Source: Psychromonas sp. Urea-02u-13
Lineage (GTDB): Bacteria; Pseudomonadota; Gammaproteobacteria; Enterobacterales; Psychromonadaceae
Direction: 5' to 3'
Assembly: GCF_002835995.1 (NCBI RefSeq)
Contig: NZ_PJBZ01000039.1
Span: forward strand, 124,001 to 188,000
Length of the DNA: 64,000 bases
This document shows, one piece after another, positions 35 through 9,233 of the stretch. A model generated the notes under the pieces. The model ran no database searches. It was not told the origin of the DNA and worked only from the letters and a program-made list of their open reading frames with translations. The stretch's first letter is position 1. The number at the start of each line of letters is the position of its first letter. A program made the translations under genes and the position numbers.

Positions 35-70
35 GGGTCTATAGAAAAGTAAAAGCTTCGAGAGTATTAG

Positions 71-248
71 CTTCGAGCTTCGACAACAAGCTTTTCGTCG
101 CTATTAGCTCGCTACTCGTAGCTTTAGTAACTTCGAGCTTCGACAACAAGCTTTTCGTCGCTATTAGCTCGCTACTCGTAGCTTTAGTAACTTCGAGCTT
201 CGACAACAAGCTTTTCGTCGCTATTAGCTCGCTACTCGTAGCTTTAGT
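71..248. repeat. 60-bp tandem repeat, about three identical copies
   Basis: Copies lie at 71-130, 131-190 and 191-248 and are identical wherever they overlap, so the expansion is recent. Each unit holds the palindromic-looking TTCGAGCTTCGA. The last copy runs into the tapT stop codon (TTA at 244-246 on the plus strand), so the repeat supplies the 3' end of that gene. No coding role is seen. Confidence 0.9.
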
Positions 249-4926: not shown

Positions 4927-5132
4927 GGAATTCCTTTTGATGTTACAAACAAAAACCGAGGGTAATCGCGACATTCTAAAATGTCTATCAGCAGAGTAGA
5001 TAAGTGGTAAGGGGATCATGTAGATTAAATTTAGTTGCTGAACCAATAGTTATTGTTGCTTTTATTTTGATGTTGTTGATGACTTGTTGATTATTCTCAA
5101 TGTTATTGTTAAATCTAAGTAAAAGGGCTGTT

Positions 5133-5752
5133 ATGAAATTTAAAGGTGCTGTAATAACCTCAATGTTATTCTTCTGTTCTTTAGCGAGTGCCGAGTGGGT
5201 TGATTTTGAAGATCTCGTGGTCGGCAAAGAATTTAATTATAAACCTTACTCATCACAGGAATTTGAATTTAAAGCGAGTCGTTATTTTAAAGGAGGATCA
5301 CTCTTTTATTACGATTTCAAAATCGCAGCTAATTTGGGCGACAGCAATAATAATGAGAATTTCTTATCCATCGACTTTGGCAGTAATAGTTGTTTGCCGG
5401 GTATTGCCATAAAACATAAAGAAAAACAGGACTTCGATTTACACGCCTTTGATATCGGAAAATTTATGATCATGATGGTGAGTTTAGTATTTCATTATTA
5501 GCGCTAAACAGCGAAGGCGAGGTGATTAAGGAGGAGCAGTTTGTTATTTCCGAAGCGTTAACACGTATTGAATTAGGTGAGAAATTTCAAAATATGCATG
5601 AATTATTAATTAATGCTGTTTATGTTGATGATATTGATAACAGTGTTGCCCGTTTCGCCCTCGATAATATAGATCTTAGTGTGAGCGGTAGTCACCGAAA
5701 AGCCCCGATGGAAAGCCAATCTAAAAGTGCCAAAACAGCCATGCTGAACTGA
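5133..5752 (+). pseudogene. Secreted hypothetical protein interrupted by a one-base frameshift
   Basis: The first frame (ATG at 5133, after AAAAGGG) encodes a signal peptide ending SLASA and a mature start EWVDFEDLVVGKEF, and stops at 5501. From about 5462 the next frame reads on smoothly as IYDHDGEFSISLLALNSEG and ends at 5752. The two parts join if one A is restored in the A run at 5459-5462, giving about 206 aa. This suggests a recent inactivating deletion, or a sequencing error in a homopolymer. I do not recognise a characterised family. A repeat block starts about 25 bp after the gene. Confidence 0.65.
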
Positions 5753-5778: not shown

Positions 5779-6720
5779 TCATTCCCAAGTTATGCCCTCC
5801 GTCATTCCCGAGTTGTTTTATCGGGAATCTTAGTTTGGTTAAGCGACATTATTTGTAGCCACGCAGAAAGCTGTTCGTCTGCGCTCATCACTCTCAAGTT
5901 ATGCCCCCCGTCATTCTCGAGTTGTTTTATCGGGAATCTCAGTTCGGCTAAGCGCCATAATTTGTAGCCACGCAGAAAGTTGTTCGTCTGCGCTCATCCA
6001 GTCAGTGGTTTAACTTAGGTTTTGTAGTTTTCGCCTTTTGAGCGAGTTACTTTCCTTTAAACGGCGAAAGGAAAGTAACCAAAGGAAATGCCGCCCCTGC
6101 CATTTTTTAATCTCGCACGGTCTAGCAGATTTACACGCACCAGCTCAAACAGCACATCCTTGTGCTGACTGAGCTTACGACTGACGTCCTGTCAGTCATT
6201 GCTAAATCTGCCATACCTTAGCAAGAAAAATGGAAGGGGATCCGCGCAGCCACGTTATGCGGTGTCACCTCGTCATTCCCAAGTTATGCCACTCGTCATT
6301 CCCGAGTTGTTTTATCGGGAATCTCAGATCGGCTAAGCGCCATAATTTGTAGCCACGCAGAAAGCTGTTCGTCTGCGTTCATCCAGTCAGTGGTTTAACT
6401 TAGGTTTTGTAGTTTTCGCCTTTTGAGCGAGTTACTTTCCTTTAAACGGCGAAAGGAAAGTAACCAAAGGAAATGCCGCCCCTGCCATTTTTTAATCTCG
6501 CACGGTCTAGCAGATTTAAGCGCACCAGCTCAAACAGCACGTCCTTGTGCTGACTGAGCTTACGACTGACGTCCTGTCAGTCATTACTAAATCTGCCATA
6601 CCTTAGCAAGAAAAATGGAAGGGGATCCGCGCAGCCATGTTGTGCAGTGTCCCCTCGTGATTCCTAGTTATGCCACCCGTCATTCCCGAGTTGTTTTATC
6701 GGGAATCTTATTTTATTTAA
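5779..6720 (+). repeat. 385-bp structured direct repeat: two full copies and two partial copies
   Basis: This otherwise gene-free stretch consists of a 109-bp partial copy (5779-5887), two full copies (5888-6272 and 6273-6657, spacing exactly 385 bp) and a final partial copy (6658 to about 6720). Each copy opens with a short hairpin, ATTCCCGA/TCGGGAAT (for example 5801-5830 and 6295-6324). Full copies contain a 13-bp stem, GTTACTTTCCTTT paired with its complement (6046-6058/6067-6079), then a nested fold: outer stem 6100-6107/6226-6233, middle stem 6125-6133/6203-6211 and two inner hairpins (6142-6175 and 6179-6197). The first partial copy lacks this core. No ORF explains it. It may be a non-autonomous mobile repeat or a structured RNA. 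Confidence 0.85.
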
Positions 6721-6800
6721 ATTATAAATTTGCAGTTCGGCTAGCTCATTCCATTTGTTGTGTTGTTTACTAGGAAAAGGCAAAATCTCTGATCCTTTAG

Positions 6801-7637
6801 TTACGGATCTAATAATGCGGGAATTTTCAATCTATTGTCGTCAAAATAGCTATATCTGCTAATTAAATTTTTAAGTTCAGTATCTTCTTCTAATTCTGTG
6901 CTGATATAAAGCATTTCTAAATAACCTCCTGGGAAGGTGGATTTTAAAATACTTGCGTAACGAGCTTCATTTATCGATAGGAGGTCATGTTCAACGTTAT
7001 AATGGCTATTTCTAATGAAGTTTAATACTTCCGATACAATAGAGGTACTTTCAATTAATGCTTCATAACACCTCTCGTTAGCCTTTAAGCGTTCTAAATT
7101 GTCTAATGTGTGCAATATATCTGGGGAGTTGTGGAATGAATAAGTACATAAAGTTCCAATATCAGAATCTCTTTGGTCTGTGCGACTTATTGTTAGATTT
7201 TGCAACCTGCGCTCGCTAACACTTAGCAAATTAAAAAAAGTACTTTCAAACTGTTGCTGTTTAACAATATCCCCCTGTTTTTGCATTAACTGGCTTTGTA
7301 ATTTCATGCTCTCTTGACTAGCTTCTTGAGCTGTTGCGGAACGTTTTAACTCTTCTTTCGTAGCTTGTAACTCTTCTCGAGTTAATCTTAGCTCTTCAAG
7401 TTGAAGGTAGATTGTATATAACAAAGCAAGTAAGGCTAAAAATGCATATACAGGGCCCAGTGTGCCACCTACAAAACTGCCAATCGCTCCCCAATCGCCT
7501 TGTTCATTACTAACAGCACCATTGAAGTGAGAAAGAAACAAGTAATAGACGTATAAAAAAGGGGCTGTTGCTACAACAATAAATCCCACAATAACTCGTT
7601 TAAAATCAGATTTTTTTTTACTAGTATTTTCTTGCAC
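6801..7637 (-). CDS. Putative phage abortive infection membrane protein (putAbiC-like)
   Basis: A 278-aa protein with two N-terminal membrane segments (about 14-36 and 48-75). The second holds a GSFVGGTLGPVYAFLALLALLYTI motif-like stretch, here split as GSFVGGTLGP and YAFLALLALLYTI. A charged coiled coil rich in EEL/KEEL (about 78-120) follows, then FESTFFNLL (about 133-141) and a helical C-terminal half. This order is typical of proteins annotated as putative phage abortive infection proteins (putAbiC). The start is GTG, with AAGGG six bases upstream. It stands alone between two repeat blocks carrying the same hairpin in opposite orientation, a common setting for acquired defence genes. Function is inferred from family resemblance; no mechanism is visible. 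Confidence 0.72.
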   Translation of the reverse strand: MQENTSKKKSDFKRVIVGFIVVATAPFLYVYYLFLSHFNGAVSNEQGDWGAIGSFVGGTLGPVYAFLALLALLYTIYLQLEELRLTREELQATKEELKRSATAQEASQESMKLQSQLMQKQGDIVKQQQFESTFFNLLSVSERRLQNLTISRTDQRDSDIGTLCTYSFHNSPDILHTLDNLERLKANERCYEALIESTSIVSEVLNFIRNSHYNVEHDLLSINEARYASILKSTFPGGYLEMLYISTELEEDTELKNLISRYSYFDDNRLKIPALLDP

Positions 7638-8035
7638 TCATTGCCCTTAATTCCTATTATTTATGATCATAAAATATTGTACTAGAGGACATACACTAAT
7701 CTACTCTGCATCATATAGTAAATACCGCACAAATAAAGTACAGCAGAACTTATGCGTGTCCTTGTTGGCTGGTAGGTTAAAAACAGTGCATGGGTTTACT
7801 GTTTGAATCGATGCGTTTAGAAGTGATAGATTGGACAAGATTAGAAAACGTCATGGGCGGATTTCTTTTGGTTCTGTTTTCTTTATCCGTTCAAAGAATC
7901 TTGCTACTTCACACTGCGAAACTGCGTTTCGGTTGTTCATCCACTACTCGCTCAAAAGGCGAAAACTGCATAATCCAATTTAATTATCCGACTGGATGAG
8001 TGAAGACGAGCTATTAATTATACCGTTCTAACCAC
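7638..8035. other. Intergenic stretch with a degraded inverted repeat remnant
   Basis: No convincing gene is present; a 69-codon open frame at 7790-7999 runs into repeat remnants and has no good ribosome site. At about 7940-8000 the sequence matches, in reverse complement, pieces of the 385-bp repeat found at 5888-6657 (the GCTCAAAAGGCGAAAACT and GACTGGATGAG segments). The stretch before 7900 shows nothing I recognise. Confidence 0.5.
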
Positions 8036-8478
8036 AATGAGATTCCCGATAAAACAATTCGGGAATGACGGTGTGTGTTTTGATTTTACTGACGGTTGAC
8101 GACTCTATCTGTGATGAGATTCCCGATAAAACAACTCGGGAATGACGGTTTGTGTTTGATTTTACTGACAGTGACAGATTCTATCCGTGCTGAGATTCCC
8201 GATAAAACAATTCGGGAATGACGGTTTGTGTTTGATTTTACTGACAGTTGACGACTCTATCCGTGCTGAGATTCCCGATAAAACAACTCGGGAATGACGG
8301 TTTGTGTTTGATTTTACTGACAGTTGACGATTCTATCTGTGCTGAGGTTCCCGATAAAACAACTCGGGAATGACAGTTTTTTGTTTTGATTTTACTGACA
8401 GTTGACAGTTCTATCTGTACTGAGATTCCCGATAAAACAATTCGGGAATGACGGTTTGTGTTTGATTTTACTGACAGC
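8036..8478 (-). repeat. Tandem array of six 76-78-bp units, each with a hairpin
   Basis: Six units begin their hairpin at 8040, 8117, 8193, 8269, 8345 and 8423. Each has ATTCCCGA/TCGGGAAT arms, then a spacer that is also repeated (TTTGATTTTACTGACAG). The hairpin is the reverse complement of the one that opens each 385-bp repeat left of the abortive-infection gene. Because the spacers are repeated, this is not a CRISPR array. Confidence 0.9.
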
Positions 8479-8579: not shown

Positions 8580-9233
8580 CTAAAACGGGATATCGTCATC
8601 AAAGTCCATTGATGGCTCGTTATATTGAGCTGGCGCTTGAGGAGCTTGCTGTTGCTGCTGTGGAGCAGGCGCTTGTTGTGGCGCAGGAGCTTGCTGTGGT
8701 GCAGGAGCTTGCTGTGGTGCTGCTTGGTATGCTGGAGCCTGTGGCGCCATTTGTGGTGCTGCTTGCTGTTGCGGAGCATTACCCCAAGACTGTTGTGCTT
8801 GTTGCTGTGGTGCTTGTTGTTGCTGCTGACCGCCACCTTGGAACTGCTGGTTTTGTCCGCCTTGGAACTGTTGTCCACCTTGACCGCTGTTATTTGAATC
8901 CATCATTTGTAATTCAGAAACGATGATATCTGTCGCGTATTTATCTTGGCCAGTGGTTTTATCCTGCCATTTACGTGTTTTCAATTTACCTTCAGCGTAA
9001 ACTTTTGCGCCTTTTTTAAGGTATTGGCCACACATTTCGCCGAACTTGCCATATACCGTTAGGTTATGCCATTCAGTTTGATTTTCGTATTCGCCTGTTT
9101 GCTTGTTCTTCCAGCTCTCAGTGGTTGCGATTGAAAAATTTGCTACCGCATTACCATTTGGCATGTAACGCATCTCAGGATCTTTACCTAGGTTACCCAC
9201 TAATACAACTTTGTTTACACTACGGTTAAACAT
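8580..9233 (-). CDS. ssb: Single-stranded DNA-binding protein
   Basis: Binds single-stranded DNA in replication, recombination and repair. The N-terminal OB fold (about 1-110) starts [20 protein letters not shown] and includes the conserved [12 protein letters not shown] region. A long Gln/Ala/Pro-rich linker (about 118-205) follows, then the acidic tail MDFDDDIPF that recruits partner proteins. At 217 aa it is longer than E. coli SSB (178 aa) because of the linker. The start overlaps the end of the upstream transporter gene by 8 bp, so the two are probably cotranscribed. No uvrA is adjacent within the window, unlike E. coli. Confidence 0.97.

What the first reader, a model, noticed from the sequence alone, without database searches (positions are those of the whole stretch)
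5779..8478. Putative abortive-infection gene enclosed by oppositely oriented repeat blocks
A putAbiC-like membrane protein gene lies between blocks that share the ATTCCCGA/TCGGGAAT hairpin in opposite orientation, with an inverted remnant of the 385-bp repeat on the right. This resembles a cargo cassette, where repeats could drive gain, loss or inversion of a defence gene. No phage or transposase gene is nearby. It is the best candidate here for an accessory system.
Basis: partly seen in the sequence, partly recalled or inferred. Interest (0 to 1): 0.6.

Follow-up and report, generated by a model that had tools for sequence, protein, structure and literature searches.

The report
Defence-gene cassette between RNA-element repeats
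A bacterial gene of a phage-linked family sits between two mirror-image copies of a structured repeat whose function was unknown, and related bacteria use the same kind of repeat pair as swappable slots that often hold candidate anti-phage genes.

Summary
The left 385-bp units each contain an element that Rfam calls TwoAYGGAY (RF01731, no function found in what I read), at 5981-6642, minus strand. The 'inverted remnant' on the right (7771-8013, plus strand) is a third, decayed copy. The gene 6801-7637 lies between them.

In nine genomes of the genus (216 places), neighbouring copies in opposite orientation 0.7-10 kb apart are minus-then-plus 21 times and never the reverse. At least 11 of 22 such loci hold genes matching known or candidate anti-phage families (retron I-B, AbiH with Shedu, GmrSD-like, SIR2, DUF2971 and others). 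Between nrdD and nrdG, two species share flanks and both elements but carry different cargo; their similarity stops at the elements' inner ends. Close pairs also occur in two other families.

The gene is a distant putAbiC-like, phrog_8999-type protein found patchily (39 of 295 genomes). In 5 of 20 neighbourhoods its relatives adjoin phage head genes.

I conclude it is cargo of a TwoAYGGAY-bounded cassette. Defence function is likely but untested; what moves the cassettes is unknown.

The parts
5981..6256 (-). TwoAYGGAY-type element, left copy 1 (RNA-sense 5' end faces the gene)
   Evidence: Genus profile E 5.5e-51, model 4-277 of 279; Rfam RF01731 at 6085-6248, 53.9 bits against gathering 43
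6367..6642 (-). TwoAYGGAY-type element, left copy 2, near-identical to copy 1 (98%)
   Evidence: Genus profile E 5.3e-49; RF01731 at 6470-6633, 48 bits; identity
6801..7637 (-). Cargo gene, 278 aa: two hydrophobic stretches near the N-terminus and a likely coiled coil (both by eye), weak putAbiC C-terminus
   Evidence: ORF; putAbiC 17.1 bits, below cut-off; phrog_8999 E 3.5e-20; PDC-S42 E 8.2e-4; all-helical structure model of mean pLDDT 53.5, too weak to use
7771..8013 (+). TwoAYGGAY-type element, right copy, decayed, inverted relative to the left copies
   Evidence: Genus profile E 1.8e-27, model 81-278 of 279; 62% to the left copies; no RF01731 match with Rfam
5802..5830 (+). Hairpin ATTCCCGA...TCGGGAAT, left outermost copy
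5911..5939 (+). Hairpin copy
6296..6324 (+). Hairpin copy between the two left elements
6680..6708 (+). Hairpin copy between left copy 2 and the gene
8040..8451 (-). Six tandem hairpin units with 76-78 bp spacing, outside the right element
5884..6653 (+). Two tandem 385-bp units (hairpin plus TwoAYGGAY element)
8580..9233 (-). ssb, right flanking core gene
   Evidence: PF00436 E 4.4e-38
5100..5752 (+). Left flanking gene in two ORFs (5100-5501, 5522-5752)
   Evidence: no relative found in the stretches around ssb of 14 same-genus genomes

Best explanation
The gene is the single cargo of a cassette bounded by an inverted pair of ~275-bp TwoAYGGAY-type elements. In this genus such pairs act as slots in intergenic DNA: the outer element ends lie beside core genes, the inner ends face each other, and the DNA between them differs between species and is often anti-phage-like cargo. 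Shown: the pair, its fixed polarity, cargo differing at shared sites, close pairs without room for a gene, and conserved base-pairing. Inferred: cargo is exchanged by recombination within the repeated elements, after the pairs themselves spread as MITE-like units with a left and a right end moved by an enzyme encoded elsewhere. Inferred too: the cargo protein is a membrane protein with a coiled-coil sensor that harms membrane or cell function on phage infection (abortive infection).
For: Window: elements at 5981-6256(-), 6367-6642(-) and 7771-8013(+) enclose 6801-7637. Genus: RF01731 in 20 of 24 genomes, up to 36 copies each, 0 of 14 controls. Polarity in nine genomes, 216 places at E up to 0.1: minus-plus 21, plus-minus 0 at 0.7-10 kb, p 9.5e-7; by my count about 14 independent sites. 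Polarity is not set by outer genes: left outer gene 11 plus/10 minus, right 18 minus/3 plus in 21 loci. Independent repeat in five genomes of three other families: below 0.7 kb, minus-plus 23, plus-minus 1. Cargo: at least 11 of 22 loci (about 8 sites) hold a match to a known or candidate defence family, e.g. RT_I-B 5.2e-121 with ATPase-Toprim_I-B 2e-173, PDC-M01A 1.8e-208 with PDC-M01B 2.9e-116, AbiH 6.5e-26 with SduA_C 1.5e-17. Swap at nrdD-nrdG: homology runs to L209:5665 and L236:4491 (element ends 5666 and 4491), resumes at 8411 and 5594 (element starts 8424 and 5607), with different cargo between. Structure: 36 of 49 predicted pairs have changes on both sides with pairing kept in 24 chosen copies. 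Gene: relatives beside phage head genes in 5 of 20 neighbourhoods; one beside SIR2 and HerA (E 3.2e-142, 3.1e-243), one beside NsnA (2e-57).
Against: For the other 11 of 22 loci no defence match was assigned; eight of these were scanned only in pooled calls whose lists are capped, and three (L158, L231, L235) had none in Pfam. Some interiors look core or metabolic: apt-dnaX by eye in L230, ribB in L233, a dapF-like ORF in G007. Flanking genes also match defence-labelled models (mad3 3 of 78 at best 1e-44, SduA 2 at 7.5e-7, BrxH 1.1e-30), and only 25 of 74 families were listed. Outside the genus, wide pairs are rare: at 0.7-10 kb minus-plus 2, plus-minus 1, and of the two wide pairs read one (L311) had a single small gene while the other (L310) held ordinary-looking ORFs. 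In the genus two plus-minus neighbours lie below 0.7 kb. The window's two ends are only 62% alike. At ribB the homology runs about 70 bp (left) and about 250 bp (right) past the element ends. No target-site duplication and no shared recombinase was found. The window gene's own defence hits are weak.
Confidence: 0.7

Rival explanations
1. The elements are 3'-end features (terminators or insulators) that settle at gene ends; two neighbours simply look like a bracket, and accessory genes collect there independently.
For: The right outer gene points at the element in 18 of 21 loci. Hairpin arrays in the stretches of the own genome that I read follow the upstream gene in sense orientation in 12 of 16 evaluable arrays, by my reading. 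The element ends in a conserved hairpin on its outward side.
Against: The left outer gene is 11 plus/10 minus, yet polarity is 21 of 21. Minus-plus pairs with 70-97 bp between exist. In another family nine of nine pairs read combine one half of each of two subtypes, so the pair behaves as one unit.
Confidence: 0.2
2. The pair is a true two-ended transposable unit (MITE-like when empty), and cargo is carried along by transposition in trans. This overlaps with the best explanation and differs in how cargo changes.
For: In G381 nine units read (of 12 minus-plus pairs there) have similar outer ends, in two variants, and always one half of each subtype. Genus pairs closer than 0.7 kb have unlike halves in 12 of 12 (p 0.0005). 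nrdD and nrdG are 16-306 bp apart in 11 of 12 genomes measured.
Against: No target-site duplication was identified, no transposase is shared by the loci read, and cargo-bearing pairs do not have unlike halves more than expected (p 0.29).
Confidence: 0.4
3. The gene arrived with a phage that has since decayed (a Mu-like moron), and the repeats are incidental.
For: Relatives sit beside a head maturation protease and neck-type protein in 5 of 20 neighbourhoods; phrog_8999 is a phage protein family.
Against: No phage family above cut-off among the ORFs scanned around the gene, no relative in the phage, plasmid or viral-contig collections at the thresholds used, and the gene lies between inverted elements as other cargo does.
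Confidence: 0.15
4. The gene is not a defence gene but another membrane protein that shares the putAbiC C-terminal pattern.
For: putAbiC match below cut-off; no function tested; for 11 of 22 loci no defence match was assigned.
Against: Nearly full-length phrog_8999 match, relatives in prophage slots and beside SIR2-HerA and NsnA, and the defence-rich company of this cassette type.
Confidence: 0.35

Closest known systems
TwoAYGGAY RNA (Rfam RF01731)
   Same: Same sequence and structure model; two window copies exceed the gathering score; compensatory changes in the genus
   Different: Tabled in 2010 as probably an RNA and probably not cis-regulatory, without further description in the passages I read (PMC2864571; Rfam 15 table, PMC11701678). 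Its pairing into inverted cassette ends and the defence-like cargo are not in those passages.
MITEs and MITE-flanked cargo (integrons flanked by MITEs in Acinetobacter, PMC10969869, passages)
   Same: Short, non-coding, multi-copy, inverted ends, cargo between copies
   Different: Ends are ~275 bp long and carry a conserved multi-hairpin fold; two end types; cargo is often one or a few candidate anti-phage genes; no target duplication found
Minimal mobile elements and dRS3-type repeat arrays of Neisseria (recalled; paper listing and abstract starts only)
   Same: Different cargo between the same core genes; short ATTCCC...GGGAAT hairpins (recalled)
   Different: There exchange is thought to use the flanking core genes (recalled); here homology breaks at the repeat's inner ends at nrdD-nrdG
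Defence hotspots without recognisable mobile elements (PMC10121019, passages)
   Same: Defence cargo varies between core genes with no clear mobile element
   Different: Here a specific repeated boundary is present at the slots read
putAbiC (PF16872) and phrog_8999 proteins
   Same: phrog_8999 aligns over residues 11-266
   Different: putAbiC score 17.1 against a cut-off of 22; no function of any member came out of my calls

Membership tests
TwoAYGGAY RNA (RF01731) | Covariance-model score at or above gathering (43 bits) | tested here: met
   Left copies 53.9 and 48 bits. The right copy fails: no RF01731 match up to E 10; it matches the genus profile at 1.8e-27
TwoAYGGAY RNA (RF01731) | Conserved secondary structure | tested here: met
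   36 of 49 predicted pairs have compensatory changes in 24 chosen genus copies, two of them from the window; no shuffled control was run
putAbiC (PF16872) | Score above Pfam gathering cut-off | tested here: not met
   17.1 bits against 22, residues 203-267
phrog_8999 | Near full-length profile match | tested here: met
   E 3.5e-20, residues 11-266 of 278, profile 8-241 of 270
Abortive-infection system | Reduced phage plating with host death | not testable with these tools
   Needs an experiment
MITE | Similar inverted ends at many sites | tested here: met
   G381: nine units at nine sites with similar outer ends in two variants; window outer ends resemble each other
MITE | Target-site duplication | tested here: inconclusive
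   Outer flanks printed; no clear duplication by eye, and the species are diverged
Composite or unit transposon | Own transposase inside the unit | tested here: not met
   The one ORF of 60 aa or more between the window elements is the cargo gene
Integron cassette | Integrase and attC recombination sites | not tested
   No attC model was run
REP/RAYT system | Y1 transposase near its repeats | tested here: inconclusive
   One Y1 match in the own genome, on C101, with no hairpin in the 12-kb stretch around it; RAYT-like ORFs, by eye, beside elements in L210 and L215

The most novel reading that the evidence does not exclude
TwoAYGGAY is not a regulatory RNA but the structured end of a previously undescribed class of mobile unit in Gammaproteobacteria. 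It has two end types and is a long palindrome when empty. An unidentified trans-acting recombinase, possibly one reading folded single-stranded DNA, and recombination among many copies make it a chromosomal socket system for exchanging anti-phage genes, including the window's membrane protein.
Probability: 0.35. Interest if true: 0.9.

Novelty: new variant of a known kind. Interest (0 to 1): 0.72.

Why it matters
Some defence genes sit in hotspots with no detectable mobile element, and how they move is unclear (stated for E. coli in PMC10121019, passages). A short, searchable, structured boundary that brackets such genes would let one find defence cassettes by their ends, including cargo of unknown function like the window gene. 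It would also give a role to an RNA family for which I found none in the passages I read.

Tried and rejected
Hairpin as cassette boundary: rejected. It is a separate dispersed repeat, 58 copies in this genome, 10 in G008 and 9 in all in three others of the 31 searched, often in same-strand arrays downstream of genes. Exact copies also occur in Methyloprofundus, Pseudoalteromonas denitrificans, a Nitrospirae and two other MAG records.

RAYT as the mover: PF01797 matches in 8 of 11 genomes, but the own genome's only match has no hairpin in its stretch. Left as a lead because RAYT-like ORFs, by eye, adjoin elements in L210 and L215.

Relatives of the gene by close search: none in genome contigs, phages, plasmids or viral contigs at the thresholds used; profile searches of whole genomes did find them. 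Structure: the single-sequence model had mean pLDDT 53.5, so no fold search was made.

Empty ssb site: none of the 14 same-genus stretches offered a clean empty site.

Papers: TwoAYGGAY is in 7 papers, 5 listed; I read passages of two. No paper holds putAbiC or the phrase tried. Searches for repeat-bounded defence cassettes gave nothing matching in the listings shown; listings were capped and subscription papers are not held.

Full report
What is in the window. The gene of interest is the 278-aa ORF at 6801-7637 on the minus strand. By eye it has two hydrophobic stretches and a long coiled coil. Its C-terminus resembles putAbiC at 17.1 bits, below the Pfam cut-off of 22. It matches the phage protein family phrog_8999 from residue 11 to 266 at E 3.5e-20.

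The repeat is a known structured element. Rfam finds TwoAYGGAY (RF01731) inside each 385-bp unit, at 6085-6248 and 6470-6633 on the minus strand, 53.9 and 48 bits against a gathering score of 43; these are the only two gathering-level Rfam matches in the 64 kb. I built a profile from 137 copies of the genus, none from the window (alignment, profile). It finds three copies in the window: 5981-6256 minus, 6367-6642 minus and 7771-8013 plus. The third is the 'inverted remnant'; it is 62% like the left copies, which are 98% like each other, and Rfam does not see it. The gene therefore lies between an inverted pair, in 6643-7770. Eight of the ten hairpins lie outside the pair; one lies between the two left copies and one between the left block and the gene.

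The element in the genus. RF01731 occurs in 20 of 24 genomes of the genus, up to 36 copies each, in 4 of 17 other genomes of the order, and in 0 of 14 controls. Denser searches of nine genomes gave 216 places at E up to 0.1, some below the gathering score. Neighbouring copies in opposite orientation 0.7-10 kb apart are minus-plus 21 times and plus-minus never (binomial p 9.5e-7). Below 0.7 kb the counts are 12 and 2; beyond 20 kb, 0 and 11. Some loci are orthologous across species; collapsing them by shared flanks leaves 14 sites by my count, for which the same test would give about 1e-4. The outer genes do not explain the polarity: in 21 loci the left outer gene is 11 plus and 10 minus, the right 18 minus and 3 plus. 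The inner element end has a recurrent motif near CAATGTGGCTAC and the outer end near GAGCGCAGACGAAC. Twenty-four chosen copies fold into a shared predicted structure in which 36 of 49 pairs show changes on both sides with pairing kept.

What lies inside. I read 22 loci whose minus-plus pairs are at least 0.5 kb apart: 58 interior proteins, and 78 flanking ones as a control. In at least 11 of the 22 an interior protein matches a known or candidate defence family: PDC-S49 (KAP NTPase) in L205; NsnA/PD-T4-2 in L206; Ppl in L209; PDC-M01A and M01B in L210; AbiH and SduA_C in L211; SLATT_5 in L215; DUF2971 in L216, L229, L234 and L236; a retron I-B RT and ATPase in L232; ThsA (SIR2) in L234. Several share sites, so these are about eight sites. 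Pooled scans of all 58 show four DUF2971 and four PDC-S31 matches, presumably the same proteins. Eight of the remaining loci were scanned only in those pooled calls, which list 25 families of 44 and of 238, so the count is a lower bound. In the flanking set defence-labelled models also match, but the strongest of the 25 of 74 families shown are mad3 (1e-44) and BrxH (1.1e-30), with SduA in 2 of 78 at 7.5e-7; no retron, AbiH, Thoeris or PDC model is in that list. Against the model: L230 encloses apt-dnaX (by eye) and L233 includes ribB.

Cargo differs at shared sites. Flank gene names here are mostly read by eye. Between nrdD and nrdG, G019 carries a Ppl-like gene and G020 a DUF2971 gene. DNA similarity (86%) runs through nrdD and the left element and stops at its inner end (L209 5665 against element end 5666; L236 4491 against 4491). 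It resumes 13 bp inside the right element's inner end. I measured the nrdD-nrdG gap in 12 of the 23 loci found: 11 are 16-306 bp, and the own genome has 380 bp with one lone element. In five other loci nrdD was not found within the ~1.5 kb fetched, one of them with an element. At ribB, G019 and G020 share both flanks and the elements but not the interiors; G003 shares the right flank with both and the left with G020; break points are looser there. Beside gyrA-ubiG, G012 has the retron and G019 the PDC-M01 pair, while G000 has a close element pair next to a reverse-transcriptase-domain gene. Beside ssb itself, 14 same-genus genomes have other genes; in G007 two minus copies and a partial plus copy (E 5.8e-6) enclose one ORF that looks like dapF. 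In G009 two minus copies lie about 6.4 kb from ssb.

Close pairs and other families. Minus-plus pairs 70-97 bp apart occur in G000, G008 and G010. In all 12 genus pairs below 0.7 kb that could be compared, the two halves are less alike than average copies of that genome (p 0.0005); in 20 wider pairs they are not (p 0.29). In 369 genomes of the class, 24 (own included) have RF01731, with stricter filters. In five genomes of three other families (85 places), neighbours below 0.7 kb are minus-plus 23 and plus-minus 1, all from two of those families; at 0.7-10 kb they are 2 and 1. In G381, nine of the 12 pairs were read: outer ends are similar, in two variants, and each pair has one half of each of two subtypes. 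Of the two wide pairs read outside the genus, one holds a single small ORF and the other ordinary-looking ORFs.

The gene family. The phrog_8999 profile is found in 39 of 295 genomes of the order, own included, patchily. I fetched neighbourhoods for 20 of these. Among their 120 neighbours, five match a head maturation protease and five a neck-type protein; by position these are L341, L343, L344, L347 and L348, which I read as a Mu-like prophage slot (Mu likeness recalled). One relative adjoins SIR2 and HerA (E 3.2e-142, 3.1e-243) and one an NsnA-like protein (2e-57). That fits a mobile anti-phage gene but does not prove it.

Reading. I hold that the window shows a TwoAYGGAY-bounded cassette with one probable defence gene (confidence 0.7 for the cassette, less for the function). 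How cargo enters is inferred: recombination within the many element copies is the simplest account of fixed ends and changing interiors, and transposition of the pair as a unit the simplest account of its spread. G006 and G019 have one and two contigs, so the genus pattern is not an assembly artefact; the window's own locus lies on a 198-kb contig of a 320-contig assembly and was not checked with reads.

Noticed in passing
window 8040-8451 and G000 contigs C246, C287, C90, C310: The ATTCCCGA...TCGGGAAT hairpin forms same-strand tandem arrays, mostly just downstream of genes in sense orientation (12 of 16 evaluable arrays by my reading); 58 copies in the own genome, 10 in one array of G008.
   Followed up: partly
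L245-L252: The exact 29-base hairpin occurs in Methyloprofundus, Pseudoalteromonas denitrificans and Nitrospirae records, far beyond the genus.
   Followed up: no
L210:7756-8775 and L215:3056-4108: RAYT-like ORFs (by eye) lie next to TwoAYGGAY elements in two genomes; a possible mover.
   Followed up: partly
L332:6256-7071 and L336:6189-7004: Relatives of the window gene are immediately preceded by a similar-looking 271-aa gene in two genomes, perhaps a two-gene version of the system.
   Followed up: no
L171:5460-6743: A 427-aa protein with a reverse-transcriptase domain (RVT_1 E 3.4e-15) sits beside a close element pair in the window's own genome.
   Followed up: no
L255 and L258 (G003, G012), nrdD-nrdG gap: The short gaps between nrdD and nrdG hold what look like two inverted outer element ends without the middle, a possible scar of a lost unit.
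   Followed up: no
window 65-248: Three tandem 60-bp repeats (97% identical) near the start of the window, just downstream of the DTW-domain gene.
   Followed up: no
L316, L317, L319, L321 (G381): A second short repeat (TGGATGGCATGAATGCAGATTTTGCAGGAGCAAAAATCTGC, varying) lies beside or inside TwoAYGGAY units of G381.
   Followed up: no
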